Of a DNA stretch of 64,000 nucleotides, positions 133 to 62,727 are shown in pieces. Every line of letters begins with the position of its first letter. The first letter of the stretch is position 1. Position numbers and translations under genes: made by a program. Where the stretch lies: NCBI RefSeq assembly GCF_003075435.1, contig NZ_QCZJ01000025.1, forward strand, positions 1 through 64,000, in the 5' to 3' direction. The notes under the pieces were generated by a model. The model did no database searches, had not been told where the DNA came from, and saw only the letters and a list, made by a program, of their open reading frames with translations. Source of the DNA: Terrimonas sp. Its GTDB lineage: Bacteria > Bacteroidota > Bacteroidia > Chitinophagales > Chitinophagaceae.

Positions 133-167
133 CTGATAGCTGATACCTGACAACCGATAGCTAAGAA
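133..167. repeat. Degenerate 7-base array
   Basis: Five consecutive 7-base units start at 133, 140, 147, 154 and 161. The first two are CTGATAG and CTGATAC and the later ones are variants of the same word. The array sits about 30 bases upstream of the promoter of the toxin-antitoxin pair. It is one member of a class of period-7 intergenic arrays in this window. Apart from this array, bases 1-193 hold nothing I can recognise. Confidence 0.5.
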
Positions 168-193
168 AATTTCATTTATACGTATAACTTTTT

Positions 194-201
194 TACATTT
201 G
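194..201 (+). promoter_or_regulatory. Putative -7 box of the toxin-antitoxin operon
   Basis: TACATTTG matches the Bacteroidota -7 consensus TAnnTTTG. It ends 19 bases before the ATG at 221 and 10 bases before the ATG at 212, so it favours the downstream start for the antitoxin gene. No clear -33 TTG is visible. Confidence 0.5.
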
Positions 202-220
202 TAGTATAAACATGCTACCA

Positions 221-478
221 ATGGATGCCAAAGTAACTTTAAGCTTTAATGCCGAAGTAATTAAGCAGGCAAAAGCATATGCCGAATCGCAGGGTTTGAG
301 TTTATCCCGCCTTATTGAGTTGCTTTTACAAAAAGTGATCAGCACCGGCCAGCATAATAACATCGAGCATATACCCATAGAAGATTGGGTAAGCATGGTG
401 GCTGAAGGTCCGGCTGAATATAAAACCAAAGCGCTTTCCAAAAAGAAAAAGAAAGAATTTTACGAAAGCCGTAAATAG
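221..478 (+). CDS. DUF6364-type antitoxin (VapB-like)
   Basis: Small 85-residue protein, predicted to bind DNA as a ribbon-helix-helix dimer and to neutralise the toxin encoded next to it. The N-terminus DAKVTLSFNAEVIKQAKAYA followed by GLSLSRLIE is typical of the DUF6364 antitoxin family: a short beta strand, then two helices. The C-terminus is very basic, with a run of Lys after residue 70, which may contact toxin or DNA. An ATG at 212 would add three residues, but it lies too close to the -7 box, so the ATG at 221 is preferred. It is followed after 7 bases by a PIN-domain gene, the normal order for this module. Autoregulation by the antitoxin is usual for the family but not shown here. Confidence 0.75.
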   Translation: MDAKVTLSFNAEVIKQAKAYAESQGLSLSRLIELLLQKVISTGQHNNIEHIPIEDWVSMVAEGPAEYKTKALSKKKKKEFYESRK

Positions 479-485
479 CCTTGTT

Positions 486-908
486 GTGAAAGTATTTATT
501 GACGCTAATATCCTGGTGGCTGTTATAAATAAAGAGTATCCCTTATATACTTATGCATCCCGCGTATTGAGCTGGATAACCACTAATAAACATCAGCCTG
601 TTACTACCTCTGTAAGCCTTGCAATCACTTTTTATTTTGCAGAAAAAAAACATGGTACATCATCTGCTAAAGAACGCATCGCTTTGATGGCAGAACATTT
701 AATCATTGCTGATTGTGGCAAAACAGAAGTATTGCAGGCTGCCACTGAAAAAAAGGTAAAAGATTTTGAAGACGGGCTGCAATATTTTGCAGCATTGAAT
801 ACCGGTTGTAGTTGCATTGTAACGGAAAATGTAAGAGATTTCTATTTCGCTAAAATTGATGTATTGAATGCGAAAGATTTTTTGTTGAAGTTTTATAATA
901 GAATGTAA
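486..908 (+). CDS. PIN-domain toxin (VapC-like ribonuclease)
   Basis: A 140-residue PIN-domain protein, probably a Mg-dependent endoribonuclease toxin of the VapBC type. The N-terminal FIDANILV carries the first acidic residue (Asp6). The C-terminal half has DFEDGLQY with Asp96, followed by the TENVRDF motif that normally positions the last acidic residue. The length fits single-domain PIN toxins. Translation starts at a GTG 7 bases after the antitoxin stop, consistent with coupling. The RNA target cannot be read from sequence. All core acidic positions seem present, so the toxin is probably intact. Confidence 0.78.
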   Translation: MKVFIDANILVAVINKEYPLYTYASRVLSWITTNKHQPVTTSVSLAITFYFAEKKHGTSSAKERIALMAEHLIIADCGKTEVLQAATEKKVKDFEDGLQYFAALNTGCSCIVTENVRDFYFAKIDVLNAKDFLLKFYNRM

Positions 909-973
909 AGCTGCAGTTATTTACAATTGATAGAGGCGATAAGATAGGAGTGCCAAGCGAAGACGCTTAACAT

Positions 974-1015
974 AGAAAGGAACGTGCAGTTCGATACCAG
1001 GGTGACGTGCTTTCT
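974..1015. other. Possible structured intergenic stem-loop
   Basis: In the gap between the toxin gene and the GntR gene, AGAAAG (974-979) can pair with CTTTCT (1010-1015), and the self-complementary ACGT at 982-985 with ACGT at 1005-1008, leaving a loop of about 20 bases. The stretch is visibly richer in G and C than its surroundings. There is no U-tract, so a simple terminator is unlikely. Function unknown. Confidence 0.3.
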
Positions 1016-1122
1016 GCAGCGGCGCAGGTCATGCAGCCAATAAATCAATCTCGTGATCTCTGATCTAATCAGCGAGAATTTAAAATATATCATGAAATAT
1101 TTGTTTGTAATAAAAAAGGTTT

Positions 1123-1130
1123 TACATTTG
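1123..1130 (+). promoter_or_regulatory. Putative -7 box of the gntR gene
   Basis: TACATTTG matches TAnnTTTG, with a TTTG upstream around 1102-1105 as a possible -33 element. Transcription would begin close to 1135, so an ATG at 1133 would be at or before the mRNA start. This decides for the ATG at 1166 as the translation start. Confidence 0.5.
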
Positions 1131-1131
1131 G

Positions 1132-1145
1132 TATGTACGAACATA
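1132..1145. promoter_or_regulatory. Putative GntR operator, autoregulatory site
   Basis: TATGT-ACGA-ACATA is an inverted repeat with 5-base arms and a 4-base spacer. It starts two bases after the -7 box, so a bound protein would block transcription. The 12-base core ATGTACGAACAT recurs exactly at 1954-1965, in front of susC. Two exact copies at the two control points of one locus make it the best candidate for the binding site of the adjacent GntR protein. Confidence 0.6.
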
Positions 1146-1165
1146 CAGACAAAGTAATAGATACG

Positions 1166-1903: not shown

Positions 1904-1936
1904 CAGGCTGGCATTAGATATAGGAAAGGAGGAAAT

Positions 1937-1944
1937 TATTTTTG
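1937..1944 (+). promoter_or_regulatory. Putative -7 box of the mannoside locus (susC)
   Basis: TATTTTTG fits TAnnTTTG and lies 9 bases upstream of the second operator copy. It implies a 5' leader of roughly 190 bases before the susC ATG at 2138. No convincing -33 TTG is seen, which would fit a regulated promoter. Confidence 0.4.
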
Positions 1945-1952
1945 TTCAGTAA

Positions 1953-1984
1953 TATGTACGAACATTTATACATAATGCATACAT
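1953..1984. promoter_or_regulatory. Putative GntR operator region of susC
   Basis: ATGTACGAACAT at 1954-1965 is identical to the site at the gntR promoter. Further ACAT half-sites follow at 1970 and 1981, with an ATGCAT palindrome between them and an ATGT at 1994, so more than one dimer might bind. The cluster begins a few bases after the expected transcription start, the right place for repression. Confidence 0.6.
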
Positions 1985-2032
1985 AGTAATATTATGTAGT
2001 GTTAAGTCAAGCAAATTTTGTCTGTGTGTTAT

Positions 2033-2093
2033 CGTGAAAAGTGAGAAGATAAAGGTGAAAGCATGTTTCACGCCTCACATTTCACGTTTGACA
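2033..2093. repeat. Heptad array forming a long hairpin in the susC leader
   Basis: Four 7-base units run from 2034 to 2061 (the first two are GTGAAAA and GTGAGAA). After CATG, four complementary units run from 2066 to 2093 (TTTCACG occurs twice). CGTGAAAAGTGAG at 2033-2045 pairs with CTCACATTTCACG at 2074-2086 with one mismatch, and GTGAAA pairs with TTTCAC inside. In the predicted susC mRNA this would be a strong stem-loop about 50 bases before the start codon. A sister copy lies at 6788-6849. Confidence 0.65.
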
Positions 2094-2137
2094 CAACAAT
2101 AGGAGCTGTTGCCATTTTATAATTTTAAATATTAACG

Positions 2138-5279: not shown

Positions 5280-6761
5280 ATGAAATACAATAACATATAC
5301 CTGATCATAGCCGCAACGCTTGGCACCGTTATATTTTCTTCCTGCAAAAAATTCCTGGAAGAAGATCCCAAAAGCCAGGTAACGATCACCAACTACTATA
5401 AAACAGAAGCGGATGCCATATCTGCCGTCAACTCCATTTATGCATATCTCAACTCCATCAGCACCGGTACTACGGCAGGCGTATACCACAGCACATTCTG
5501 GGTAACGATGGGATTAGCCTCCGATGAACTGCTGAATAACCAGGTAGCCGCTCCGCAATTCGATCAACTGGCAACCTTTACCTATACTTCGCAAAATAGC
5601 GCGCTTGAAGAAATATGGGCAATGCATTATAAAACCATTACCATTGCCAATATAGCCATAGCACGCATACCGGGCATAGCCATGAATGAATCGCTGAAAA
5701 ACAGGCTGGTGGGAGAAGCGAAATTTTTAAGAGCGCTGATGTATTTTAATATGGTGCGCATGTTTGGCAGCATTCCCCTGCTGGTAGAAGAAAATAATCC
5801 GCTGACGCCTCCTCCTGCTTCGGCTGAAACCATATATGCACAGATCACCAGTGATCTTGATTTTGCTGCGGATAATCTTCCCGACAGCTATGATCCGGGT
5901 AACGGCAGGGGGCGCGCCACGAATGGTGCTGCCAATGCACTGCTGGCAAAAGTTTACCTTACACAAAAGCAATGGGACAAAGCTGCCACTACTGCAAAAA
6001 AAGTGATTGATTCCAACCGGTATGCACTGTGGGAAGATTTTGCAGATGTATTTAAGCTCTCCAGCCGCAATGGGAAAGAAGCGATATTTTCCGTAGGGTT
6101 CGGGGATGCAGGTGGCGCCATCATATTCTGGGAAGCAGGCCAGTTCCAGGTAAGGCTTTTGCCTCCCGACTTAAGTGTGGAAGGCGTAAAAAATGCGCAG
6201 GGCTGGCAGATCCCTACAGAGTACTTATATAACCGGTACGATGCAGACGACAGGAGAAGAGCCGTAACTTTTATTACTGAGATCAATGATCCGGCCACAG
6301 GCCCAAAAACGATCAGGCCCTATATACAAAAATACTGGGATCGTGCTGCAGAGCCTACCGGCAATGAATCTTCAAATGATTTTCCTGTATTGCGCTATGC
6401 GGATGTATTGCTCATGTATGCAGAAGCCAGTAACGAATTGGGGCAAACAGTTGTAGCTGAAGAGTATATTAATAAAATAAGAAAGAGAGCGCGGTTTAAT
6501 GGTACGAACTATCTGCCAACGGTGCCGGATTATTCAGGGTTGAGTAAAGACCAGGTGCGCGACGCCATCATTAAGGAACGGCTGCTTGAGTTTGTGGCAG
6601 AAGGACAAAGGTGGTTTGATCTTGCCCGTACCAATACGCTGACAGAGAAAGTGCCTTTGGCCAAACCCGGCGTTACACCACAAACTAAAAATTACCTGTT
6701 CCCTATCCCGCAGAGAGAAATAGACCTGAACAATTCCCTGGAACAAAATACCGGGTATTGA
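5280..6761 (+). CDS. SusD/RagB-family surface glycan-binding lipoprotein
   Basis: A 493-residue lipoprotein that acts as the lid and ligand-binding partner of the SusC transporter. The lipobox is FSSC with Cys22, followed by KKFLEEDPKSQ, a typical SusD start. TPR-like helices follow, with KNRLVGEAKFLRALMYF and the classic SusD stretch IRKRARFNG and IIKERLLEFVAEGQRWFDL near the C-terminus. It ends with FPIPQREIDLN, also family-typical. Length is normal. It follows susC directly and shares its transcript. The exact glycan cannot be read from the sequence; mannosides are inferred from the gene neighbourhood. Confidence 0.95.
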   Translation: MKYNNIYLIIAATLGTVIFSSCKKFLEEDPKSQVTITNYYKTEADAISAVNSIYAYLNSISTGTTAGVYHSTFWVTMGLASDELLNNQVAAPQFDQLATFTYTSQNSALEEIWAMHYKTITIANIAIARIPGIAMNESLKNRLVGEAKFLRALMYFNMVRMFGSIPLLVEENNPLTPPPASAETIYAQITSDLDFAADNLPDSYDPGNGRGRATNGAANALLAKVYLTQKQWDKAATTAKKVIDSNRYALWEDFADVFKLSSRNGKEAIFSVGFGDAGGAIIFWEAGQFQVRLLPPDLSVEGVKNAQGWQIPTEYLYNRYDADDRRRAVTFITEINDPATGPKTIRPYIQKYWDRAAEPTGNESSNDFPVLRYADVLLMYAEASNELGQTVVAEEYINKIRKRARFNGTNYLPTVPDYSGLSKDQVRDAIIKERLLEFVAEGQRWFDLARTNTLTEKVPLAKPGVTPQTKNYLFPIPQREIDLNNSLEQNTGY

Positions 6762-6856
6762 GAGATGGCAGACGTGGGAAGCGAGATGTGAAATGTGAGA
6801 TGATAAATGTGAGACGGCATAATTTCACTTTTCTCATTTCACTTCTCACGATGAGC
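6762..6856. repeat. Heptad array and hairpin between susD and manA
   Basis: A 7-base periodicity can be followed from just after the susD stop to about 6856. Left-hand units include GTGAAAT and GTGAGAT (6788-6801). The right-hand half is complementary, with ATTTCAC at 6822 and again at 6836. GAGATGTGAAATGTGAGA (6783-6800) pairs imperfectly with 6832-6847. The left arm is close in sequence to that of the susC leader array at 2034-2061, so the two are copies of one family. It could lower expression downstream or protect the susCD mRNA 3' end. Confidence 0.65.
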
Positions 6857-10067: not shown

Positions 10068-10865
10068 ATGCTACGCTGTAAGCCTTTTGCATGTATAACC
10101 CTTTTGCTGCTGCTGACTGCAGCCGGTTGTAAAAAGGATTCCAACAATGAAAATGGTCTTTTGTTAAAGCTTACGCCTGATAACGTAACTGGTAAATCGG
10201 GCCGTATTGTTGAAGCTACTTTATCCATTACATCCGCAACGCCTGTTAAAAGCATTGTGATCTATAAAACCATCAATCTTAAACGCGATAATACCTTCGG
10301 CGGCAGTGGTACTGAAACAGTCAGCCCGGTAAGCACAGGAACCGACACCTATGAATATAAATTCACTTACCAGCTCCTGGGAGAGGAAGTAGACAAGCTG
10401 GTTGGATTTAACTTTCACGTAGAAAATAATAATGGTTCGGCGGCAGAAAAAGACCTCACTGTCAATACCACCACTTCCGGGCAGCAGATCATGTACAGCC
10501 GGAAATGGAAGCTGATCTCAAGAATGTGGATCTCTGTAACTCCTCCTGCGGAGGATATGAAAGAATGTGAGAAAGATGATGTTTATTCCTGGAACGAAGA
10601 CAGCACCTATAACATTAATTTCGGAAGCAATGCCTGTACCTTCGACGGTTTTAATGTGTTTGACCGCTGGGAGCTGAGCGAAGATGAAAAAACACTGACA
10701 CAGGTATATCATTCCCTGTTTGATCCTGCTGCCATCACTACCGAAACCTATACTGTCAAAACGTTGACAAGCACAAAGATCGTCATGTCGCAGTTGATTG
10801 ACCTCACAGTATTCGGTTTAACAGATCATGAAGAATTTGAATCCACTTTTGAACCGGCGCCATAA
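10068..10865 (+). CDS. Two-domain lipoprotein with lipocalin-like C-terminus
   Basis: A 265-residue lipoprotein of unknown function. The lipobox is TAAGC, followed by KKDSNNENG. The first half (about 25-140) looks like an Ig-type beta-sandwich of the kind found in surface glycan-binding proteins. The second half (about 145-265), with YSRKWKLIS, YSWNEDSTYNINFGSNAC and WELSEDEKTLTQVYHS, resembles lipocalin-like domains common in Bacteroidota lipoproteins. It lies inside the mannoside locus between the transporter and a propeller lipoprotein, so a role in glycan binding at the cell surface is plausible, but there is no direct evidence. Confidence 0.7.
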   Translation: MLRCKPFACITLLLLLTAAGCKKDSNNENGLLLKLTPDNVTGKSGRIVEATLSITSATPVKSIVIYKTINLKRDNTFGGSGTETVSPVSTGTDTYEYKFTYQLLGEEVDKLVGFNFHVENNNGSAAEKDLTVNTTTSGQQIMYSRKWKLISRMWISVTPPAEDMKECEKDDVYSWNEDSTYNINFGSNACTFDGFNVFDRWELSEDEKTLTQVYHSLFDPAAITTETYTVKTLTSTKIVMSQLIDLTVFGLTDHEEFESTFEPAP

Positions 10866-10876
10866 AATAAACAAGC

Positions 10877-12100
10877 ATGAAAGATTTTAAGAAGACAGCA
10901 TTTATCGCGGCGGCATTTGCCATCATGTCCTGCAACAATAATGATATAAACAATAAAGCTGAAGAAGACAGCCTGTCCTTAACACACCTGCAGTTCAGCG
11001 TGGAACGGGCAGAAGACTGGTCGGGCATGTTCCTGCGCAAGCACGGATGGTTTGGAGGAGACGGTATATTTGCAACAACGGCAAACGGCGTTGAAAAAGA
11101 AGGGTCGGCAAAAGAAAGCGAAACAATGATCTGGTTCAGCGATACCATGTTTGGCGATATCATCAATGATTCTTTGCAGACCGGCTATGGAATGATCAAC
11201 AATTCCGTTGCCTGTCTGCAGGGAGGAAAGCCTGATACGGCTTCTATCCGTTTTTACTGGGATCAAACTCCGGAAGGAAAGCCTACATCTGTTTTTATTC
11301 CTCAAACACCTGCTGCTAAAGAAAAAGAGTATTACTGGCTGGGAGATGGCTTTACCAACCAGGAAAAAAATAATGATATCTATATTTTCGGGTACCGTAT
11401 CAGCAATATTCCGGGGGTAGCTGTTTTCGGATTCAAAGAAGAGGGTAATACACTCATCACTATCCCGGCCAACGAAAAGCCGCCATACAAAAACATGCGC
11501 CAGTTGGATATTCCTTTCTTTCAGAACCAGCCGGTGGATGCTGTAGGATCGTTTGGAGCAGGTATACTCGTAAATACTGCCAAAGCCGGAGCGGCAAAGC
11601 CAGATGGTTATGTATATATCTATGGCGTGAGAGGTAAAGCAAAAGAAGTGATGGTGGCACGTGTGAAGCCTGCCGGTATTGAAACCTTCAGCGAATGGAG
11701 ATTCTGGAATGGTACAGACTGGGCCGCTGATGTGAACGACATTAAACCCATAGCCGACAGGGCATCCAACGAGCTGAGTGTTACACCACTGGCTGATGGC
11801 AGGTACCTGATGGTTTTTCAAAAAGACGGGTTGGGAAAATTTGTAGGTATGCGGTTGGGCGCTTCGCCCGCAGGCCCGTTCGGGCCTATAATAGATGTAT
11901 ATGATGTAAGTGAAGACCTGAAAGAGAGTAAAAATCTTTTTCCCTATAACGCCAAGGCCCATCCGGTAATCTCTGCGCCGGGTGAGTTATTAATCAGCTA
12001 TAATATCAATTCATTCGATTTTGACAAAGACATAAAATTATTTCCCAATCTCTACCGGCCGAGGTTTATACGCCTGAAGTACCGGTTGGGTAAAGAGTAA
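10877..12100 (+). CDS. DUF4185-like five-bladed propeller lipoprotein
   Basis: A 407-residue lipoprotein (lipobox AIMSC). Features such as WFGGDGIFATTANG, TMIWFSDTMFGD, YYWLGDGF, PDGYVYIYGVRG and LPVTPLADGRYLMVFQ-like strands match DUF4185, which folds as a five-bladed beta-propeller related to GH43-type glycosidases. Acidic residues in the first blade (GGDG and FSDTMFGD) could form a catalytic or binding centre. It starts 11 bases after the preceding lipoprotein gene and lies in the mannoside locus, so a role in cleaving or binding side chains of the glycan is a reasonable guess. A long reading frame on the opposite strand is an antisense shadow. Confidence 0.75.
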   Translation: MKDFKKTAFIAAAFAIMSCNNNDINNKAEEDSLSLTHLQFSVERAEDWSGMFLRKHGWFGGDGIFATTANGVEKEGSAKESETMIWFSDTMFGDIINDSLQTGYGMINNSVACLQGGKPDTASIRFYWDQTPEGKPTSVFIPQTPAAKEKEYYWLGDGFTNQEKNNDIYIFGYRISNIPGVAVFGFKEEGNTLITIPANEKPPYKNMRQLDIPFFQNQPVDAVGSFGAGILVNTAKAGAAKPDGYVYIYGVRGKAKEVMVARVKPAGIETFSEWRFWNGTDWAADVNDIKPIADRASNELSVTPLADGRYLMVFQKDGLGKFVGMRLGASPAGPFGPIIDVYDVSEDLKESKNLFPYNAKAHPVISAPGELLISYNINSFDFDKDIKLFPNLYRPRFIRLKYRLGKE

Positions 12101-12106
12101 GCCTGG

Positions 12107-12197
12107 TTGCAGGTTGCAGGTTACAGGTACTCAAACTAAAAACCTGTAGCTAAATAGTAAGCCTGCGGCTAACAACCTGTAACCTGCAACCTGTAAC
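12107..12197. repeat. Heptad array with 21-base inverted arms
   Basis: TTGCAGG occurs twice and then as TTACAGG (12107-12127). The right arm at 12176-12196 is the reverse complement with one mismatch in 21 bases. The 48 bases between the arms keep the 7-base spacing in degenerate form. It fills most of the gap between the propeller lipoprotein and the GH92 gene. There is no U-tract, so it is not an ordinary terminator. Confidence 0.75.
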
Positions 12198-12222
12198 TTC
12201 CCTCATCCTTCAAAGTTCATGC

Positions 12223-14949
12223 ATGAAAATACGTTCTTCTTTCTTTGTTATTATACTGCTGGCCGGCTGCCATACCATGCAGGCCGGAACACGGAATATT
12301 GCAGGTAAAGCAACCATAACCGTATCTACCCAATTAAGTGATGCTTATTCCGGCAACAATGCTGTTGACGGGATAATCGGGATTGACGGTAAAGGAGAAT
12401 GGGCCTGTGAAGGCAAAACCACTGATTGGGGCTATATCCGTTTTCCCTGGATACAGCTTACCTGGAATGAGCCTCAACTGATCAACAAAATCGTGCTGTA
12501 CGATCGCCCTTCTCCTGTGGATAATATTGCCGGCGGAAAGCTTATTTTCAGCGATGGCTCTGAATTATGGGTCAACCAGATCCCCGCAGACGGAACAGGT
12601 AAGGCAATACAATTTCCGGCGAAGAAAGTTGACTGGGTAAAATTTGTGGTCACCGATGGCAGCGGCGCTGATCTCGGTTTTTCTGAAATAGAAGTATTTC
12701 CTTCTCCCGTGCAAATGAATGATTATGTATCGTGGGTAGATCCGTATATAGAGACCAATAGAGGAAGATATTTTTTCTTTATAACCGGGGGTGTTCCGTT
12801 TGGTATGGCTACCAGCGCCCCGCTTACCAGGAATAAAAATCAGAACGGCGGAGGATACAACTATAATGAAACGGAAATACTGGGGTTTGAACAGATTCAT
12901 ACCTGGATGATATCGGGCATTGAAATAATGCCGGCGACCGTAAAAGAAAATCCTGCTGCCGGTCAGCAGGGATGGAAATCCGCTTTTAATCATGATGATG
13001 AAATTGTACAGCCGGGCTATCACCGTGTGATGCTGCAGGATAATAAAATATGGGTGGAGCAAACCGCAACGGAGCGTGTAAATTTTTACAGGTTCACTTA
13101 TACAAAAGATACAGATGCCCGTATCATCATTAACCTGGGCGGCTATGTGGCTAACAGCACAATGGAGAATGCGCATATCACCAAAGTAAGCAATACCGAA
13201 ATAGAAGGCTGGTTCAGCTCGGTGAAAAGATATTGGGGCGGTCCCAAAGAGGTGAAGATATTTTTCGTCATTCAGTTTGATAAATCCTTTGATCACTTAG
13301 ATGCCTGGCAGGGAACGAACCGGCAACAAAACATAGCCACTGCTTCAGGCGACAGCCTTGCGCTGGGCGCCGCCTATACGCTTAAAAAAGGAGATATGCT
13401 GCAAATGAAAATAGGGCTTTCTTATACCACCGTTGCCAATGCAAGGAATAACCTCAACACAGAATGCACTACCTGGGATTTTGAAGCGGTGAAAAATAAT
13501 ACACAGCAGGTATGGAATGAGTGGTTAGGAAAGATCGCGGTAAAAGGAGGATCTGAAAAAAATAAAATAAAGTTCTATACCGATCTCTGGCATGTGCTGC
13601 TGGGCAGGCAAAAGATCACGGATGTTTCCGGTGACTATCCTGACAGGACCACCGGCAAAAGAGAAGGCAATTTCACTGATGCTGTTTTCAGGATCAAAAC
13701 AGTTCCCAAAGATGCGGAAGGCAAACCTGTATTCCAGATGTATAATTCCGATGCATGGTGGCTCACACAATGGAACCTGAATATTCTCTGGGGATTGGCC
13801 TGGCCGGAAATGATGGACGAATTTTCCGCATCCATGATCGAGTATGCCAATAACGGTTATTTATTGCCGCGGGGCCCCTGCGGCGGCGGCTATTCTTATA
13901 TTATGACGAGTTGCCCTGCATCCAATCTTATTGTCAGCACTTATATGAAAGGCCTGTTGACGAAAGTGGATTCCCGTCATGCCTATGACGTGGTGAAGCG
14001 GAATCATTTACCGGGCGGTATGCTTGGCTCAAAAGAAGACATCAGTTTTTATACCCAAAAAGGATGGTGGCCGGATAACGCGGGCATTACCATAGAAGCT
14101 GCCTTCCAGGATTGGGGCATCGCACAGATGGCATATACATTAGGAAAGAAAAAAGACTATAGCTTTTTCAATAACCGCTCCAAAGGATGGACAAATTGTT
14201 TTGACGATCAGACAAAGTGGTTGCTTCCGAAGAATAAAAAGGGTGAGTTTATGCATAAAGACCCGTTGAGCGGCAATGGCTGGATTGAAGCCAATGCATG
14301 GCAGGCTACCTGGGGCTTATCGCACGCATTACCGGAGCTTATCACTAAAATGGGCGGGGCGGATACTTTTTGCCAACGGCTCAATTACGCATTTGAGCAA
14401 TCAAGAGCCAGCAATTTTGTATTCGGCTATACCGAAGGATATGTCAGCTATGCCAACCAGCCGGGCTGCTCCAATGCGCATGTGTTCAGCTATGCCGGCA
14501 AACCCTGGCTCACACAATACTGGGTACGCAGGGTAAGAGAACAGGCTTATGGCGATACCACGCCCGATATGGGATATGGAGGGCATGATGAAGACCAGGG
14601 GCAAATGGGAGCAGTGAGCGCCCTGATGTCTATCGGGCTTTTCAGTATCACCGGCAATGAGTCTGTTAACCCTGTATATGAAATTACCTCTCCTGTATTT
14701 GATGAAGTAGTCATCCGGTTAAACAGGCGCTACTACAGCGGGGATACATTTACCATCACCACTTACAACAACAGCAGCAGCAATGATTATATACAAAAGG
14801 CAAGCCTGAACGGGCAACGCTATGATAATTTCTGGTTTTCCCATGATCTCTTTTCAAAAGGCGGCAGGCTGGAGCTTTGGCTGGGAGACAAGCCCAATGA
14901 AAAATGGGGCGTAAACCAATTACCTTCGCTGCAACCTAATGCAAAATAA
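12223..14949 (+). CDS. GH92-family alpha-mannosidase lipoprotein with discoidin-like domain
   Basis: A 908-residue glycoside hydrolase of family GH92, an exo-acting alpha-mannosidase (mostly alpha-1,2) that depends on calcium. The lipobox is LLAGC, so it is probably membrane anchored. Residues about 25-165 resemble an F5/8 type C (discoidin) carbohydrate-binding domain (NAVDG and PWIQLTW). The GH92 part begins at VSWVDPYIETNRGRYFFFI, continues with GGVPFGMATSAP and GFEQIHTWMISG, and contains the family signature GHDEDQGQMGAVSALMSIG near residue 788. It would release mannose from mannan or N-glycan type substrates for uptake by the adjacent transporter. Its end overlaps the kinase gene by 11 bases, so the two are translationally coupled. 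Linkage specificity is not readable. Confidence 0.92.
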   Translation: MKIRSSFFVIILLAGCHTMQAGTRNIAGKATITVSTQLSDAYSGNNAVDGIIGIDGKGEWACEGKTTDWGYIRFPWIQLTWNEPQLINKIVLYDRPSPVDNIAGGKLIFSDGSELWVNQIPADGTGKAIQFPAKKVDWVKFVVTDGSGADLGFSEIEVFPSPVQMNDYVSWVDPYIETNRGRYFFFITGGVPFGMATSAPLTRNKNQNGGGYNYNETEILGFEQIHTWMISGIEIMPATVKENPAAGQQGWKSAFNHDDEIVQPGYHRVMLQDNKIWVEQTATERVNFYRFTYTKDTDARIIINLGGYVANSTMENAHITKVSNTEIEGWFSSVKRYWGGPKEVKIFFVIQFDKSFDHLDAWQGTNRQQNIATASGDSLALGAAYTLKKGDMLQMKIGLSYTTVANARNNLNTECTTWDFEAVKNNTQQVWNEWLGKIAVKGGSEKNKIKFYTDLWHVLLGRQKITDVSGDYPDRTTGKREGNFTDAVFRIKTVPKDAEGKPVFQMYNSDAWWLTQWNLNILWGLAWPEMMDEFSASMIEYANNGYLLPRGPCGGGYSYIMTSCPASNLIVSTYMKGLLTKVDSRHAYDVVKRNHLPGGMLGSKEDISFYTQKGWWPDNAGITIEAAFQDWGIAQMAYTLGKKKDYSFFNNRSKGWTNCFDDQTKWLLPKNKKGEFMHKDPLSGNGWIEANAWQATWGLSHALPELITKMGGADTFCQRLNYAFEQSRASNFVFGYTEGYVSYANQPGCSNAHVFSYAGKPWLTQYWVRRVREQAYGDTTPDMGYGGHDEDQGQMGAVSALMSIGLFSITGNESVNPVYEITSPVFDEVVIRLNRRYYSGDTFTITTYNNSSSNDYIQKASLNGQRYDNFWFSHDLFSKGGRLELWLGDKPNEKWGVNQLPSLQPNAK

Positions 14950-15808
14950 TCCAGTTATGAATTTAGTTGCCGGAGCAGATATCGGAGGATCACATATTAC
15001 CGCAGGACTGGTTGATATAGACAACAGGAAACTGATTGATTCGTCTGTGGTAAGAAAACATATTGACCCGGCAGCGGATAGTGATATTATTATCGGGCAA
15101 TGGTGTGATGCCATACTTGATTGCCATAAAACTGTCGGCATTACTATTCAGCAAACAGGTATTGCCATGCCCGGGCCTTTTGATTATGTAAACGGCATCA
15201 GTTATATTAAAGGGCTGCACAAATATGAAAACCTGTATGGATTGAATGTAAAAAGCATGATGGCAAAACAGTTGCAGGTTGAACCGGCGCAGATCAGTTT
15301 TAAGAATGACGCGCAGGCTTTTATGGCGGGAGAATTATTCTGCGGCTGTGCGGCAGGATATAGTAATGTAGTCGGCATTACGCTGGGCACAGGTCTTGGT
15401 TCTGCCGTTTATTATAATAATGAACAACGGGAAGGCGACCTGTATTGTATGCCCTTCAGGGAAGGTATGGCGGAAGATTATATCTCCTCACGCTGGTTTG
15501 TTTTTGAATATGAAAAGCTCACAGGCAATACAGTAAAAGGTGTAAAAGAACTTGCAGACAGGATGCATACCGACCCGCATGCCGCCCGTTTATTCGAAAC
15601 CTTTGGCGCCACGCTGGCGGAAGTATTGCTCCTTCGCTATAAGGATCAAAATCCGGAGATCATTTTTATCGGCGGCAATATCGCACATGCCTGGGATTGT
15701 TTTATTCCTTCGGCGATCAGATACCTGGAAGAGCGGGATAGTACCATCAGGCTTACAAAAGCTATGCTGGGCGAAAAAGCCGCGCTGATCGGTGCGTGCT
15801 GCGGGTAA
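14939..15808 (+). CDS. ROK-family sugar kinase, probable mannokinase
   Basis: A 289-residue cytoplasmic kinase of the ROK family that phosphorylates a hexose at C6. The N-terminal phosphate motif is GADIGGSHI. The catalytic Asp is Asp124 in FKNDAQAF, and a second phosphate-binding loop is ITLGTGLGSAV. The zinc motif CxCGxxGC and the GEIGH box of typical ROK kinases are absent; the region reads REGDLYCMPFREGMAEDYIS instead, marking a divergent subgroup. In this locus the likely substrate is mannose, producing mannose 6-phosphate for ManA (inference). The start at 14939 overlaps the GH92 stop; an ATG at 14957 is an alternative. Confidence 0.85.
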   Translation: MQNNPVMNLVAGADIGGSHITAGLVDIDNRKLIDSSVVRKHIDPAADSDIIIGQWCDAILDCHKTVGITIQQTGIAMPGPFDYVNGISYIKGLHKYENLYGLNVKSMMAKQLQVEPAQISFKNDAQAFMAGELFCGCAAGYSNVVGITLGTGLGSAVYYNNEQREGDLYCMPFREGMAEDYISSRWFVFEYEKLTGNTVKGVKELADRMHTDPHAARLFETFGATLAEVLLLRYKDQNPEIIFIGGNIAHAWDCFIPSAIRYLEERDSTIRLTKAMLGEKAALIGACCG

Positions 15809-30477: not shown

Positions 30478-30575
30478 TCCCCCGCATTTCCACCTTTTAC
30501 CTTATTTTCAAATTAATTCCCCCACCTTTCCACACTCCCATATTCCCTTATTTCCACATTAGTTAGTTCCCTTAC
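30478..30575. repeat. Pyrimidine-rich degenerate 7-base array upstream of dnaX
   Basis: From about 30485 the gap reads as pyrimidine-rich 7-base units, for example ACCTTTT and ACCTTAT at 30492-30505, and TATTCCC at 30541. A 25-base segment at 30469-30493 recurs imperfectly at 30509-30533, 40 bases later. The array runs into the dnaX -7 box. The rest of the gap between the divergent genes (30360-30470) holds nothing recognisable. Confidence 0.45.
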
Positions 30576-34187: not shown

Positions 34188-34229
34188 AATTTGAAAATGT
34201 GGAAATGTGAAAATTTTGATGGAAAAGTT
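34188..34229. repeat. Purine-rich degenerate 7-base array
   Basis: Units at 34188, 34195, 34202 and 34209 (for example AAATGTG and GAAATGT) keep a 7-base spacing in the gap after the E2 gene. There is no mirrored arm. It belongs to the same class as the other arrays in this window. Confidence 0.4.
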
Positions 34230-34877: not shown

Positions 34878-34940
34878 GTTTGTTGTTTATAGTTTGTAGT
34901 TGATTAACCCGTAACCCTAAACCACAAACTACAAACACTC
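34878..34940. repeat. Nine-unit heptad array with inverted halves
   Basis: Nine 7-base units run without interruption from 34878 to 34940. Left-half units are of the type GTTTGTA and right-half units of the type AACTACA, the switch falling at a unit boundary at 34906. TTGTTTATAGTTTGTAGTT (34883-34901) pairs with 34920-34938 with a few mismatches. It lies exactly between the convergent DUF1080 and aminotransferase genes and touches the stop codon of the latter, so it may serve as a transcript end for both. Confidence 0.75.
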
Positions 34941-54097: not shown

Positions 54098-54137
54098 CCT
54101 GCCGGCAGGCAGATTTCAAATTTCAAATTTCAAATTT
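54098..54137. repeat. Palindrome plus ATTTCAA tandem repeats between etfB and etfA
   Basis: CCTGCCGGCAGG at 54098-54109 is a perfect 12-base palindrome. It is followed by three exact ATTTCAA units at 54113, 54120 and 54127 and a partial ATTTT that runs up to the etfA ATG. The 7-base unit places it in the same class as the other arrays. It could tune the etfB to etfA ratio. Confidence 0.65.
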
Positions 54138-54138: not shown

Positions 54139-55107
54139 ATGTCTGTTTTAATATTCATAGATCAATCAGAAGGGCATATAAAAAAAGCTTCTCTTGAAGC
54201 ATTGAGTTACGGCACTGAGATTGCTGGAAAATCCGGGATTGCTGCAGAAGGTATTATACTAGGGAATGTGAGTGAAGATATTGCTGCTTTGGGTAAGTAT
54301 GGCGTAAAGAAAATTTATCATGTAGATAATGCCGCGCTTAACCATTTTGATGCGCAGGTGTTTACCAATGCTATTGCAGAGGTGGTACAGCGCAGCGGCG
54401 CAAAAGTGATTGTATTTTCAAACAATGTAGATGGCAAATCTGTAGCACCGCGTCTTTCTGTTAAGCTTAAAGCAGGATTGGTATCTGGTGCGGTTGCATT
54501 GCCAGATACAAGCAATGGCTTCATAGTGAAGAAAACCGTGTTTTCAGGAAAAGCTTTTGCCAATATTGCCCTGAATGCGGATATAAAAATTATTGCGCTT
54601 AATCCAAACTCATTTTCAGTAAATACCGGAGGGGAGGGGAGTGCTGAAGTAGTAAAAACTGATGTAAAAGTGGAGGAGGCTAAAGTAAAAGTTACCAGTG
54701 TAAATAAAGTAAAAGGTGAAGTACCGTTGAGTGAAGCTGATATTGTGGTGAGTGGGGGGCGTGGGCTAAAAGGTCCCGAAAACTGGGGCATGATTGAAGA
54801 GCTGGCCAAATTGCTTGGCGCAGCCACTGCCTGCAGCCGCCCTGTTGCTGACACACATTGGAGACCACATCATGAGCATGTTGGTCAAACCGGGCTGGCA
54901 ATTGCACCTAATTTATATATAGCTATCGGTATCTCCGGGGCAATACAACACCTTGCCGGGGTGAACAGGAGTAAAATAATAGTAGTAATTAATAAAGACC
55001 CGGAAGCGCCATTTTTCAAGGCTGCTGATTATGGTATAGTTGGCGATGCTTTTGAAGTGGTTCCCAGGCTGATAGAAGAGATAAAAAAAGTGAAAGGCGT
55101 AGCATGA
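54139..55107 (+). CDS. etfA: Electron transfer flavoprotein subunit alpha
   Basis: A 322-residue FAD-binding ETF subunit. The N-terminal half (VLIFIDQSEGHIKKASLEAL) matches ETF-alpha. The C-terminal FAD domain carries DIVVSGGRGLKGPENWGMIE, GAATACSRPVADTHWRPHHE, VGQTGLAIAPNLYIAIGISG and KIIVVINKDPEAPFFKAADY, with the usual late acidic end. It forms the ETF heterodimer with EtfB. A clear terminator follows at 55130. Confidence 0.95.
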   Translation: MSVLIFIDQSEGHIKKASLEALSYGTEIAGKSGIAAEGIILGNVSEDIAALGKYGVKKIYHVDNAALNHFDAQVFTNAIAEVVQRSGAKVIVFSNNVDGKSVAPRLSVKLKAGLVSGAVALPDTSNGFIVKKTVFSGKAFANIALNADIKIIALNPNSFSVNTGGEGSAEVVKTDVKVEEAKVKVTSVNKVKGEVPLSEADIVVSGGRGLKGPENWGMIEELAKLLGAATACSRPVADTHWRPHHEHVGQTGLAIAPNLYIAIGISGAIQHLAGVNRSKIIVVINKDPEAPFFKAADYGIVGDAFEVVPRLIEEIKKVKGVA

Positions 55108-58249: not shown

Positions 58250-58300
58250 ATGTAAGATGTGAAACGATGCGGGGTTGTGAATCTGAAACCTGTAATCTAT
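58250..58300. repeat. Weak degenerate 7-base array
   Basis: ATGTAAG and ATGTGAA at 58250-58263, and AATCTGA and AACCTGT at 58280-58293, follow a 7-base spacing with slippage. The array lies between the convergent rocD and lhgO genes. The rest of this gap (58084-58249) has nothing I recognise. Confidence 0.3.
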
Positions 58301-59530: not shown

Positions 59531-59630
59531 GAATTTTTAGATTATAATCATGGCGCAAGATAGTTGAGAATGTTTGAGGTAACAAAAACCAGCTGCTTTT
59601 TTGATATAGTAATGATGGAGTGATACAATA

Positions 59631-59656: not shown

Positions 59657-59679
59657 AGGTATATTCTTTCGATGTTGTA

Positions 59680-60516
59680 TCAGAATGGTAAAGTAACCGG
59701 GAAGGAAAGGGGACCAATAATTAATGTTCCTATATTATCGCAAGTGCCGTCTCCATAATCAAGTGTAGCAGTAGCATTATTTGTTTTTAAATCAATTTTT
59801 CCTGAAGTAATGTTATTGCAGGCAATTTCCTTTATAAGAGGAGATGTAATTGTACCCTCAATATCTCCTAAAGATGAAGTGCTTGCAATATATCCTGTTA
59901 TAGAATAAACATCATCACCAAATACCAAAGGTGTGGAAGACCCGGCAGTTTGTGTATAGTTCTGTGTCCCTTTTAAATGAAATACGGTGCCGTTAGGGAA
60001 AGTAACTATGCCGTCAATAATATCAATCTTAAACTCTGTAGCAGATACTGTAGTGATTTTATAATCTCCCTCTATCTTATAGCCGTTTACATAAAAACCG
60101 TTGAATACAGGAACTATTTCGGTACCGGGTATAGCTATCCATTGATTTAATGTAAAGCTCACTGATCCTTTACCGGTATACCCCCTTAAAGTGCAACCGG
60201 TTCCGAAATCAACTACTACTTCTTTTGGAAAATCCACAAAGCCACCGGGTGTAGCGGTTACTGTAGCGCAACCATATTTTCTGTCAGCAGTTGCTTTTTC
60301 GCTTTCAGACTCCGGTGCGCCGGTTACAAACATAATATCCAGGGCAGTATTTAATACAGCATATGCAGTAACGGATGCTGAAGCAGCCGCAACAGTTTCT
60401 TTGTTTTGTGCATCTGAAGATGCTGTTTTTTTAGCTTCTTTTTTACAGGATGCAATTAATACTAATAATGCAAATGCTGCACTTAATGCACGGGAAGTAG
60501 AAGATGCAAAAATCAT
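59680..60516 (-). CDS. Lipoprotein of unknown function
   Basis: A 278-residue lipoprotein (lipobox LIASC followed by KKEAKK). No named family is recognised. The mature part is rich in beta-strand and shows a duplicated look: FPKEVVVDFGTGCTLRG in the first half and TATLDYGDGTCDNIGTLIIG at the C-terminus, each with DxGxGC-like signatures. Four Cys (in GCATV, GTGCT, IACNN and GTCDN) could form disulfides. It appears to be a single-gene unit on the minus strand. Confidence 0.7.
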   Translation of the reverse strand: MIFASSTSRALSAAFALLVLIASCKKEAKKTASSDAQNKETVAAASASVTAYAVLNTALDIMFVTGAPESESEKATADRKYGCATVTATPGGFVDFPKEVVVDFGTGCTLRGYTGKGSVSFTLNQWIAIPGTEIVPVFNGFYVNGYKIEGDYKITTVSATEFKIDIIDGIVTFPNGTVFHLKGTQNYTQTAGSSTPLVFGDDVYSITGYIASTSSLGDIEGTITSPLIKEIACNNITSGKIDLKTNNATATLDYGDGTCDNIGTLIIGPLSFPVTLPF

Positions 60517-60688
60517 ATAAGATTTTATTTGTGGTTAAAAAATAATAAGACTATATCAATATGATAGTCAGTTGTGATACATCTTTTTCCGGGGGAGTTA
60601 AGAAGAAGGCAAAATAAAACCTGTTATCTGCAGGATATAATAGACAAGTTAAACAGCTGATTAGTTATTTAGCAATAATCATGCCTTG

Positions 60689-60745
60689 AAGGGGAGAAGG
60701 CGGAAGGTGGACCGCTTATACCCTCCACCTTGTACCTTCTACCTC
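60689..60745. repeat. Heptad array with mirrored arms upstream of the beta-synthase gene
   Basis: AAGGCGG and AAGGTGG (60697-60710) on the left face CCACCTT, GTACCTT and CTACCTC (60725-60745) on the right, all in a 7-base frame and roughly complementary across a short centre. It ends about 37 bases before the ATG of the cystathionine beta-synthase gene and may lie near its promoter. The gap 60517-60688 has no recognised feature. Confidence 0.65.
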
Positions 60746-60781
60746 TTAAATCGTATCTTTAGATACACAAAGTTTACAGGC

Positions 60782-62143
60782 ATGGATATAAAAAACAATA
60801 TACTCGAAACAATAGGCAACACCCCGTTAATAAAGTTGAATAAAATCACCAAAGAGCTGCCATGCACTGTTGCTGCAAAGGTTGACTATTTTAACCCGGG
60901 TAATTCTATTAAAGACAGGATGGCAATTAAAATGGTTGAAGTTGCCGAGCAGGAGGGTAAATTAAAACCGGGCGGAACAATTATTGAATGCACTTCGGGA
61001 AATACAGGTATGGGACTTGCGCTTGCGGCGTCGGTTAAGGGCTATAAATGTATATTTACTTCAACAGATAAACAGTCGAAAGAAAAATTTGATATCCTTA
61101 AAGCTTTAGGTGCGGAAGTAATTGTATGCCCTACAAATGTTGAACCTGATGATCCTAAAAGTTATTATTCTGTTGCTAAAAGACTGGCAAAAGAAATACC
61201 TGATGCGTTCCTTTGTAATCAATATGATAATCTTGCTAACCGGTTAGCGCACTATGAAACTACCGGTCCTGAAATCTGGGAGCAGACTGATGGAAAAATC
61301 ACCCATCTTGTTTCAACAGCGGGAACAGGCGGCACAGTTACTGGTACGGCAATGTTCCTTAAAGAGAAAAATCCGGATATCCAGGTTTGGGCGATAGATG
61401 TGTATGGTTCCCTGCTCACAAAGTTTTTCAGAACAGGAGAACTGGATATGAATGAGGTACACCCTTATATATCTGAAGGGTTTGGAGAAGATTTTGTGCC
61501 TCAGAATTATGATATGAGCGTGATAGATCATTTTGAGCAGGTAACAGATAAGGATGGTGCAATTATGGCCAGAAGGTTAGCCAAAGAAGAGGGGATTTTT
61601 TGCGGGTACAGTGCGGGCAGTTGTTTGCAGGGATTAATGCAGCTGAGGAGCAAGTTAAAAAAGGGTGACCTGGTAGTATGCATTTTCCATGATCATGGAA
61701 GCAGGTATGTGGGCAAAATATATAATGACCAATGGATGATGGAACGTGGATTTATGGATGTGAAAACATTTAAAGATGTTATTTCAACAAGGGGAGAAAA
61801 GCCATTGGTAACGGTGCAGCCACGAGAAACGGTTGCTAAGGCTTTTGAGTTAATGAAAAAATATGATATAGAGAACATACCTGTAATGGATAATGAAAAC
61901 CAGGTGGGCTCCATCTCGCAAATTGGGTTATATAACAATATATTTGATAGTCCGGCTATAAAAGGCGAAGCTGTAAGTACCATTATGGGTGCTCCATATC
62001 CTGTTGTTGCTTTTGATACGCCGGTAGAACGATTGGTTAAACTTATTAACAAAGAGAATGGTGCCATACTGGGTAAAGATGAAAGTGGTAAAATGCACAT
62101 TATCACCAAGTACGATATTATTGAATCGATGGCTAAACTTTAA
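60782..62143 (+). CDS. Cystathionine beta-synthase-like enzyme with CBS domains
   Basis: A 453-residue PLP enzyme. Residues 1-330 are a fold-type II catalytic core (NILETIGNTPLIKLNKITKE, PLP Lys in NPGNSIKDRMAIKM, CTSGNTGMGLALAASVKGY, STAGTGGTVTGTAMFLK). The last 110 residues form a pair of CBS domains (VQPRETVAKAFELMKKYDIE and IMGAPYPVVAFDTPVERLVK), which in other enzymes bind adenosyl ligands. It lacks the N-terminal haem domain of animal CBS. It condenses serine (or O-acetylserine) with homocysteine or sulfide. The frame is open to 60686, but the ATG at 60782 begins the conserved domain. Confidence 0.92.
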   Translation: MDIKNNILETIGNTPLIKLNKITKELPCTVAAKVDYFNPGNSIKDRMAIKMVEVAEQEGKLKPGGTIIECTSGNTGMGLALAASVKGYKCIFTSTDKQSKEKFDILKALGAEVIVCPTNVEPDDPKSYYSVAKRLAKEIPDAFLCNQYDNLANRLAHYETTGPEIWEQTDGKITHLVSTAGTGGTVTGTAMFLKEKNPDIQVWAIDVYGSLLTKFFRTGELDMNEVHPYISEGFGEDFVPQNYDMSVIDHFEQVTDKDGAIMARRLAKEEGIFCGYSAGSCLQGLMQLRSKLKKGDLVVCIFHDHGSRYVGKIYNDQWMMERGFMDVKTFKDVISTRGEKPLVTVQPRETVAKAFELMKKYDIENIPVMDNENQVGSISQIGLYNNIFDSPAIKGEAVSTIMGAPYPVVAFDTPVERLVKLINKENGAILGKDESGKMHIITKYDIIESMAKL

Positions 62144-62727
62144 AGAGAGCTCCTTTCTTGTGGTTTTTAGTTCTACAACTATTTTTAGGTTAACAGTTTG
62201 ATTAATATATGATAACATAAATTTTATAATATCTATACCGGCATTTAAACAGTAAATTTTCTATTATGTTCACAAGTAATATTACGAGTGTTAATAAAGT
62301 CTTAATACGAAGCAAATTATAGAAAAAAAAGTTGCAAAAATGGGGGAAACCTCTATTGGATGGTGGATAACTGGTGAGTATCTTTGGATAGAAGTTGATT
62401 GATGAGGAAAACTACACCTCAACCATCCAAGATCCAAAAACCGTCCTAAAATAATTGAGTCCAAATCCTTTGAAAAGGGTAGATAAAATCCAATATCAAT
62501 CAACTTTCTCTTAAGCGTATTTAGCCATTAAGCCATATATCCGGTAATTTCCATATCCTGAAAAACATACAGCATCCAATAATCTTTCTGAAAAATCAGC
62601 CCCCGTGAAAAAATCCAATTAACCTGAATGAGGAACTGATCAACCTTGGACAACGAGTTTTGTATGAGGTCCCTAAAGTCCAATCCTTAGAACATCTATT
62701 CTTAGAGGCTCTAACAAAAAGAAATGA
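62144..62727. other. Long gap without a recognised gene, with heptad array
   Basis: No convincing coding region is found in these 584 bases. The stretch 62357-62447 contains the period-7 array described separately. The 12-base pair AAGTTGATTGAT (62392-62403) and its exact reverse complement (62495-62506) adds a larger hairpin. Around 62690-62715 a small palindrome TTAGAG-G-CTCTAA is visible. The terminator at 62728 suggests that some transcript, perhaps a small RNA, ends here. Confidence 0.4.
62357..62447. repeat. Heptad array with mirrored halves
   Basis: TGGATGG, TGGATAA and later TGGATAG (62357-62391) on the left face CAACCAT, CCAAGAT and CCAAAAA (62420-62440) on the right. All stay in one 7-base frame for 13 units. 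The halves are roughly reverse complements. Confidence 0.65.

What the first reader, a model, noticed from the sequence alone, without database searches (positions are those of the whole stretch)
133..62447. Window-wide class of intergenic arrays with a strict period of 7 bases, often with mirrored halves
At least eleven gaps hold degenerate tandem units of exactly 7 bases: about 133-167, 2034-2093, 6762-6856, 12107-12197, 30485-30575, 34188-34229, 34878-34940, 54113-54133, 58250-58300, 60689-60745 and 62357-62447. The word differs each time (for example CTGATAG, GTGAAAT, TTGCAGG, GTTTGTA, ATTTCAA, TGGATGG), yet the period is constant, and six of them switch to reverse-complement units half way, giving imperfect hairpins. 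They avoid genes and cluster at operon ends or leaders. Heptanucleotide tandem repeats are known in some cyanobacteria. A family in Bacteroidota where the word varies but the period and mirror form are kept is not one I can name.
Basis: seen in the sequence. Interest (0 to 1): 0.78.

Follow-up and report, generated by a model that had tools for sequence, protein, structure and literature searches.

The report
Mirrored seven-base repeats between genes
Gaps between genes in this bacterium and its sister species often hold worn tandem repeats of seven-base words that tend to run inward from both gene edges in a fixed direction, and at the same gap the words are often swapped between species while the period and direction stay.

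Summary
Nine of eleven places have a lag-7 excess over shuffles (p<0.01); 30485-30575 and 34188-34229 are period 8. The class is genome-wide: in 864 kb of the host genome, 42 strong arrays (score >=15) at lag 7 against 0.3 in shuffles; only lags 14 (22) and 8 (6) also stand out. One of 61 arrays lies inside a gene.

New here: a polarity rule. Similar words stand in one orientation in left halves of gaps and reverse-complemented in right halves: 400 of 474 similar pairs in the host, 351 of 556 in sisters, chance 50% (no word list). By word families chosen after inspection, 66 of 70 two-sided gaps obey, and 29 of 29 whose halves use different words. At orthologous gaps arrays tend to persist (27 both, 15 and 5 one-sided, 33 neither), but the word differs more often than not.

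Closest known: inverted GGGAATC heptamer arrays of Xanthomonas. Tests for a terminator or RNA-hairpin role gave no support. I read them as fast-turning, polarised heptad satellites made by DNA-synthesis errors and tolerated at gene ends. New variant of a known kind.

The parts
133..167 (-). Heptad array CTGATAG x5, the reverse-complement form of the CAGCTDT family, 45-54 bases before a start codon
   Evidence: lag 7 18/28, p=0.0005; gene start called at 212 or 221
2000..2098 (.). MITE-like dispersed element with ends TGTTAAGTCAA / TTGACACAACA that contains the 2034-2093 heptad hairpin
   Evidence: right-end pattern with up to 3 mismatches: 14 sites in this genome, 87 in sister G002, reversed-pattern control 0; copies printed; ends judged by eye
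2034..2093 (.). Mirrored heptad array GTGARAT / ATTTCAC inside that element
   Evidence: lag 7 30/53, p=0.0005
6762..6856 (.). Mirrored heptad array GAGATGT / TCTCATT, begins at the stop codon of the 5280-6761 gene
   Evidence: lag 7 47/88, p=0.0005; untruncated array 6759-6809 overlaps the gene 3' end
12103..12219 (.). Mirrored heptad array CAGGTTD / HAACCTG between two same-strand genes; 23-base arms with one mismatch
   Evidence: lag 7 42/84 at 12107-12197; hairpin score 21, arms printed; same word in G002, left half GTAAGTR in G005, no array in G001
30522..30560 (.). Period-8 array (reported as 7)
   Evidence: lag 8 segment score 14.8; lag 7 not significant
34188..34216 (.). Period-8 array AATGTGAA (reported as 7)
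   Evidence: lag 8 segment score 13.8; lag 7 not significant; TRF period 8
34878..34940 (.). Heptad array GTTTRTR then YAYAAAC between convergent genes
   Evidence: lag 7 35/56, p=0.0005
54110..54137 (-). Short heptad array ATTTCAA directly before the start at 54139
   Evidence: lag 7 14/14 at 54113-54133, p=0.0015
58250..58300 (.). Weak heptad array between convergent genes
   Evidence: lag 7 21/44, p=0.004; below the segment threshold of the blind scan
60689..60745 (.). Mirrored heptad array GAAGGTR / TACCTTC in a divergent gap
   Evidence: lag 7 29/50, p=0.0005; hairpin score 13.5
62357..62447 (.). Borderline heptad-like array TGGATGG / CCAAGAT
   Evidence: lag 7 31/84, p=0.0095; below the segment threshold of the blind scan

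Best explanation
These are polarised, fast-turning heptad satellites of gene ends. Shown: tandem 7-base units lie in gaps between genes, often starting at or within a few bases of a stop codon; a limited set of words is used; words stand mostly in one orientation in the left half of the gap and reverse-complemented in the right half, for same-strand gaps of both directions and for convergent gaps; sites tend to persist between species while words are often replaced, sometimes in both halves at once. Inferred: units arise by 7-base slippage (tandem duplication and loss during DNA synthesis); mirrored halves arise when a 3' end carrying the repeat folds back or switches template and copies itself, so that the strand that slips becomes the 5' arm; exchange between dispersed copies yields gaps with two different words in the kept orientation. 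Selection mainly removes arrays from coding and promoter DNA, so they collect after stop codons. No dedicated function is needed, though single arrays may be recruited.
For: Lag-7 segments 99/60/42 at scores 9/12/15 against 11.7/1.3/0.3 in shuffles. Gaps with an array: same-strand 49 of 332, convergent 9 of 79, divergent 5 of 99. 23 arrays overlap a gene edge: 19 a 3' end, 4 only a 5' end. Word-list-free orientation test: concordant 400 of 474 similar pairs (host), 351 of 556 (sisters), 712 of 984 (host against sisters); null 50% with sd 2%. With word families, forward word left of reverse word in 38 of 39 host and 28 of 31 sister gaps, mixed-word gaps 16 of 16 and 13 of 13; shuffled gaps give no two-sided gap at all. 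Same family in both halves 23 of 39 and 18 of 31 (permuted 7.5 and 6.0). Site persistence 27/15/5/33 in 80 comparisons over 29 sites. Words differ in 12 of 20 (left) and 12 of 17 (right) assignable comparisons, both halves switched together at L093:1776-1840 and L093:4761-4861. Transcript G-U 44, A-C 37, p=0.51; T tract after 1 of 18 array hairpins, 4 of 56 others. Template-switch homogenisation of inverted-repeat arms is described elsewhere (starts of the abstracts of PMC8604942 and PMC7202029 in the listing).
Against: No unit gain or loss was seen directly: no strains of one species were available. Fixed orientation even in a word without G skew (CAGCTDT, 31:5 host, 16:10 sisters) is not predicted by plain slippage. 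Site persistence could also mean selection. In divergent gaps the skew form of the rule fails (4:3 and 5:8). Array-free gap edges show a milder bias the same way (363:248). Two-sided same-word gaps do fold well (score 12 or more in 22 of 23 host and 13 of 18 sister gaps), which a hairpin function would also give. In unrelated Bacteroidota loci the rule is not significant (18:12).
Confidence: 0.45

Rival explanations
1. REP-like functional hairpins: transcribed 3'-end structures that stop exonucleases or terminate transcription; any word will do as long as the two halves pair.
For: Location after stops, between same-strand and convergent genes, rarely in divergent gaps, as the abstract of PMC3733652 says of REPs. 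Hairpin score 12 or more in 30 of 57 array gaps against 64 of 365 others. Both halves sometimes switch word together.
Against: No excess of G-U over A-C mismatches in the transcript strand (44:37; 12 hairpins to 10). No T tract (1 of 18). 29 of 70 two-sided gaps use different words; only 7 of these 29 fold with score 12 or more (2 of 16 host, 5 of 13 sisters), yet all 29 keep the orientation.
Confidence: 0.22
2. Miniature mobile elements: each word family is a transposed palindromic element (MITE or REP) moved by a transposase.
For: Likely for one of the eleven places: 2000-2098 is a dispersed element with inverted ends, 14 pattern sites here and 87 in a sister genome. 47 of 63 array gaps share sequence with another gap, 70 of 418 array-free gaps do. 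At L106:2547-2671 some species seem to hold that element and others a heptad array (by eye).
Against: For the other families I saw shared sequence in the arrays and no conserved ends (by eye only). REP foot GTAG in 0 of 24 array hairpins. Arrays at 6 of 23 Y1 transposase loci of four genomes, three of them in or within 100 bases of the match (L237, L243, L246); no formal enrichment test was made.
Confidence: 0.15
3. Arrays are binding sites, spaced 7 bases, for a nucleic-acid-binding protein (the model MacGregor proposed for TAACTGA arrays).
For: Units keep a core and vary at set positions (GTTTRTR, CAGGTTD; by eye). Three-unit patterns of three words occur in 16, 16 and 20 of 296 phylum genomes, host included, against 7, 2 and 8 for the reversed words.
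Against: At the same site the word is replaced between species more often than kept, and one genome uses at least eight words.
Confidence: 0.08
4. Chance or compositional periodicity.
For: Weak single places such as 62357-62447; no pooled lag-7 peak in L014-L088 (lags 6, 7, 8.293 .292 .295).
Against: 42 strong lag-7 arrays against 0.3 in dinucleotide shuffles in the host; coding DNA without the signal.
Confidence: 0.01

Closest known systems
GGGAATC heptamer repeats of Xanthomonas and GGGGA(C/T)T repeats of Nostoc (PMC4692102; section 10 read, passages of the rest)
   Same: Degenerate, dispersed, mostly intergenic heptad arrays, commonest length four units; in X. campestris 186 arrays, with 70 cases of two sites close together in convergent orientation; almost exclusively nearer the 5' neighbouring gene than the downstream one; 7-8% between divergent genes. 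That the G-rich arm comes first is my inference from 'convergent'.
   Different: There one G-rich word type per genome; [quoted passage not shown]
TAACTGA direct repeats of Beggiatoaceae, Cyanobacteria and five Bacteroidetes (PMC4679880; abstract and sections 3, 8, 12, 24 read)
   Same: Intergenic heptad arrays, also in Bacteroidetes, where the author notes other heptamer repeats in the same gaps. The reverse complement TCAGTTA is one base from the TCAGCTA word here.
   Different: One favoured word in the main genome, single-base variants rare as repeats, most arrays just before a start codon; no gap-side orientation rule in the sections I read.
Cyanobacterial STRR heptanucleotides and long simple sequence repeats with heptamers commonest (Mrazek 2007): recalled, and as cited in PMC4679880 and PMC4692102; the originals were not read
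   Same: Period 7 preferred; three words in Calothrix.
   Different: From recall: more perfect arrays, and no gap-side orientation rule that I know of. Mrazek 2007 is not held.
REP extragenic palindromes (PMC3733652; abstract only)
   Same: Palindromic, dispersed, downstream of coding regions, between same-strand and convergent genes, many pairs in opposite orientation.
   Different: No GTAG or CGTC foot (0 of 24), no conserved sequence, 7-base periodic arms, no consistent transposase link.

Membership tests
Heptamer tandem repeat class (Xanthomonas/Nostoc/STRR type) | Tandem units of 7 bases, intergenic, dispersed | tested here: met
Heptamer tandem repeat class (Xanthomonas/Nostoc/STRR type) | Inverted (convergent) pairs among the arrays | tested here: met
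   70 two-sided gaps, 66 of them with the forward word left
Heptamer tandem repeat class (Xanthomonas/Nostoc/STRR type) | One or a few genome-specific words | tested here: not met
   word clusters of 47, 22, 10 and 5 arrays plus five single ones among 89 host arrays
Heptamer tandem repeat class (Xanthomonas/Nostoc/STRR type) | G-quadruplex-type GGG tract in the unit (Xanthomonas/Nostoc) | tested here: not met
   main words GTTTRTR, CAGCTDT, CAGGTTD, ATTTGAR have no GGG
REP (GTAG/CGTC) | Unpaired GTAG or CGTC at the stem foot | tested here: not met
   0 of 24 array hairpins; other hairpins 4 and 2 of 104
REP (GTAG/CGTC) | Flanking of RAYT/Y1 transposase genes | tested here: inconclusive
   arrays at 6 of 23 Y1 loci, three in or within 100 bases of the match; no enrichment test
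Intrinsic terminator | Hairpin followed by a T tract in the transcribed strand | tested here: not met
   6 or more T in 8 bases after 1 of 18 array hairpins, 4 of 56 others
Conserved RNA hairpin | Pairing kept in the transcript (G-U tolerated, A-C avoided) | tested here: inconclusive
   G-U 44, A-C 37, modest numbers
MITE | Inverted ends, many similar copies, target duplication | tested here: inconclusive
   2000-2098: ends and copies found, target duplication not settled; other arrays show no fixed ends by eye
Rfam family | Match above gathering score | tested here: not met
   no hit in the window

The most novel reading that the evidence does not exclude
A polarised repeat-writing process acts at gaps between genes: when the gap is broken or stalled, the 3' end on each side is extended with heptads drawn from an oriented repertoire (telomerase-like or template-switching synthesis), and the two extended ends are then joined. 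That would give, as observed, words of fixed orientation running inward from both gene edges, free to differ between the two sides, and rewritten between species at the same gaps.
Probability: 0.08. Interest if true: 0.9.

Novelty: new variant of a known kind. Interest (0 to 1): 0.6.

Why it matters
Heptamer repeats have been reported as over-represented in many bacteria (as cited in PMC4679880 and PMC4692102), with polymerase slippage proposed and little tested. The polarity rule, seen also in gaps whose two halves use different words, and the replacement of words at kept sites narrow the cause: palindrome formation alone, hairpin selection alone and base skew alone do not seem enough. The rule can be checked in any genome, and the sister species here offer a ready system for how DNA between genes is rewritten. 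One case (the G005 copy of the 12107 site) also suggests that such arrays can supply a gene's last codons and stop.

Tried and rejected
Rfam scan of the window: nothing. Intrinsic terminators: no T tract. REP/RAYT: no foot motif, no consistent transposase neighbour. RNA pairing selection: no G-U over A-C excess in transcripts; an excess of G-T over A-C on the contig plus strand (76:37, pooled) is unexplained; the reverse-complement rerun (38:80) shows no coding error, and contig orientation should be arbitrary. Arm-to-arm comparison (within-locus above every same-word between-locus score in 13 of 19) is biased, because hairpins were chosen for arm similarity; I do not lean on it. Base skew as the sole cause of orientation: CAGCTDT follows the rule without G skew (31:5 host, 16:10 sisters). 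Plasmid search with a synthetic CAGGTTD array: no match, perhaps because of the low-complexity filter.

Limits and results against. Genes were called by my own hexamer script, so start codons are rough. 864 kb of 6.18 Mb of the host genome was examined (14%). The eight word families and their orientation were chosen after I had seen host and sister arrays, so searches are partly circular; one search was added as a test without a word list, and there the rule is clear in the host (84%) but weaker in sisters (63%); its pairs are not independent, and sister stretches include orthologous gaps. The family scan rings in 74 of 434 host and 81 of 364 sister gaps, in 30 and 29 when read backwards and in 18 and 18 when shuffled, of which none is two-sided. 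ATTTGAR is one base from its own reverse complement; without it the two-sided counts are 32 of 32 host and 21 of 21 sister gaps in order. The 80 site comparisons cover 29 sites, and the stretches were partly chosen for arrays, so the p value is too small. Counts are chunks, not independent arrays. In unrelated Bacteroidota (L014-L088) the rule is not significant at lag 7 (18:12; 21:11; lag 14 26:11, p=0.02), and the pooled lag-7 self-match is not above lags 6 and 8. G006 too has no pooled lag-7 peak (.274 against .277 at lag 8). The reversed words ring in 7, 2 and 8 of 296 genomes, against 16, 16 and 20 for the words; my notebook entry 1 calls this control about zero, which is true of the host only.
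Full report
What was checked. The window is G000:C25:1-64000 of a 6.18 Mb genome in 82 contigs. The nearest hits to its 908-residue protein are Bacteroidota, the closest titled Sphingobacteriales or Chitinophagaceae; sister genome G001 has a contig of the same length (835,268) as Agriterribacter humi NZ_VOHQ01000001.1. I tested the eleven places one by one, then the class on 864 kb of the same genome, then sisters.

The observation. Nine of eleven places have a lag-7 excess (p<0.01, 2000 dinucleotide shuffles each); 30485-30575 and 34188-34229 are period 8. Lag 14 gives 69, 42, 22; lag 8 gives 26, 14, 6; lags 4-6, 9-13 and 15 give at most 2 at score 15. Intergenic self-match peaks at 7, 14 and 21; coding DNA has no lag-7 peak. 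The seven sister genomes sampled have 1 to 10 lag-7 segments each at score 11 (G001 also has 2 at lag 5 and 3 at lag 6; G006 shows no pooled lag-7 peak). In 75 loci of other Bacteroidota lag 7 gives 26 segments, in 14 of the loci, lag 8 gives 19, lag 14 gives 23, and lags 5, 6 and 9 give 3, 4 and 9; the pooled self-match there has no lag-7 peak.

Where they lie. Of 61 arrays (score 13, not cut at gene edges) 37 are between genes, 23 overlap a gene edge and 1 is inside a gene; the edge is a 3' end in 19 and only a 5' end in 4. Same-strand gaps hold an array in 49 of 332, convergent in 9 of 79, divergent in 5 of 99; within 60-500 bases the figures are 45 of 231, 6 of 53 and 2 of 84.

The words. 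Among 89 host arrays 418 of 3916 word pairs lie within one base (any rotation, either strand) against 114 when letters are shuffled. Eight families that I drew up by eye (GTTTRTR, CAGCTDT, CAGGTTD, ATTTGAR, GTSAATR, GTAAGNG, GAAGGTN, GTGARAT) take in 127 of 153 array chunks in the host, 171 of 216 in sisters and 30 of 66 in other Bacteroidota. Three-unit patterns of the first three occur in 16, 20 and 16 of 296 genomes drawn over the phylum, host included; the same patterns read backwards occur in 7, 8 and 2. So some words recur beyond chance over the phylum, by a factor of two to eight.

The polarity rule. Host arrays adjoining a stop codon have G over C in the sense strand in 32 of 39 (4 the other way, 3 ties), those adjoining a start C over G in 20 of 21; in sisters 22 of 27 and 6 of 8. 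Without any word list: take the arrays in left and right halves of gaps, pair those from different gaps whose words lie within one base, and ask whether same-strand pairs share the half. In the host 400 agree and 74 do not, in sisters 351 and 205, host against sisters 712 and 272; random orientation gives 50% with sd 2%. With the families, the forward word lies left of the reverse word in 38 of 39 two-sided host gaps and 28 of 31 sister gaps; shuffled gaps give no two-sided gap. The halves use the same family in 23 of 39 and 18 of 31 (permuted 7.5 and 6.0). In mixed-word gaps the order is kept in 16 of 16 and 13 of 13, and these fold weakly: hairpin score 12 or more in 2 of 16 and 5 of 13, against 22 of 23 and 13 of 18 for same-word gaps. 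The skew form holds for both directions of same-strand gaps and for convergent gaps; divergent gaps do not show it (4:3 and 5:8). Octamer arrays obey it too (17:2 and 13:1); array-free gap edges lean the same way more mildly (363:248). So the mirror form is more than palindromes: it is an orientation of words toward the middle of the gap.

Sites persist, words change. For 29 host gaps with a conserved gene pair I compared up to five sister genomes: array in both 27, host only 15, sister only 5, neither 33. Where both have arrays the left word is the same in 8 and different in 12 (7 not assignable), the right word the same in 5 and different in 12 (10 not assignable). At L093:761-866 all six species hold an array, with GTTTRTR or CAGCTDT on the left and CAGCTDT, CAGGTTD, ATTTGAR, GTAAGNG or an unassigned word on the right. 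At L093:1776-1840 both halves are GTTTRTR in two species and ATTTGAR in two others. At the window's site 12100 the word is kept in G002; in G005 the left half is a different word that also seems to supply the gene's last codons and stop.

Function tests. Array hairpins have no T tract (1 of 18; other hairpins 4 of 56). In same-strand gaps transcript G-U mismatches number 44 and A-C 37. Neither supports a conserved RNA hairpin, though the numbers are modest. Y1 transposase genes do not stand out as neighbours (arrays at 6 of 23 loci), and the REP foot motif is absent (0 of 24). One place, 2034-2093, lies in a dispersed MITE-like element.

Reading. Location and inverted form match what was described for GGGAATC repeats in Xanthomonas: 186 arrays, 70 cases of convergent neighbours, almost exclusively nearer the 5' gene, 7-8% between divergent genes (PMC4692102, section 10). 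What is new is the many-word repertoire in one genome, one orientation rule for both halves even when their words differ, and word replacement at kept sites. I favour DNA-level turnover: 7-base slippage, self-copying of a repeat-bearing 3' end, and exchange between copies, with arrays tolerated mainly after stop codons. The steps after the sequence facts are inference. Fixed orientation of differing words is not explained by plain slippage and leaves room for an end-directed or templated process, which I give as the novel reading.

Literature. Searches listed the Xanthomonas/Nostoc and TAACTGA papers; in their listings and in the four papers opened (PMC4679880 and PMC4692102 in sections, PMC4060949 in passages, PMC3733652 abstract) I saw no gap-side orientation rule and no word switching at orthologous gaps. 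Only open-licence papers are held; Mrazek 2007 was not.

Noticed in passing
window 2000-2098; L187-L195, L207-L236: Dispersed element of about 100 bases with inverted ends near TGTTATGTCAA/TTGACATAACA and a GTGARAT heptad hairpin inside: 14 pattern sites in this genome, 87 in sister G002, none in G004 and G009.
   Followed up: partly
window 30522-30560, 34188-34216; L091:2170-2343, L120:15513-15570: A sister class of period-8 arrays (GAATGTGG/AAATGTGA type) with the same left-right polarity.
   Followed up: partly
L111:13854-13947, L099:7846-7959: Another dispersed family with words of about ten bases by eye (TACACAAAGAGCCACAAAG ... CTTTGTGGCTCTTTGTG), also mirrored, with 10-11 matches in other gaps.
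   Followed up: no
gaps L111_7063, L122_14434, L109_3976, L118_12842: Longer dispersed gap sequences with 9 to 21 matches in the sampled 864 kb that do not look like heptads.
   Followed up: no
L160:9056-9150 (G005 copy of window 12100): In G005 the array seems to reach into the upstream gene and supply its C-terminal tail and stop codon.
   Followed up: partly
array hairpins of the sampled host and sister stretches: G-T mismatches exceed A-C mismatches on the contig plus strand (76:37) regardless of gene direction; contig orientation should be arbitrary, so this is unexplained.
   Followed up: partly
window 10386-15801: This block is 91% identical to G002 and about 85% to G005, while the other blocks searched are nearer 65-82%, and in the stretches fetched the match stops at its right edge in both: a candidate for transfer between species.
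   Followed up: no
L243:1254-1431: A 178-base mosaic heptad array beside a Y1 transposase gene in G005 runs through about four words (by eye) in one unbroken lag-7 segment.
   Followed up: no
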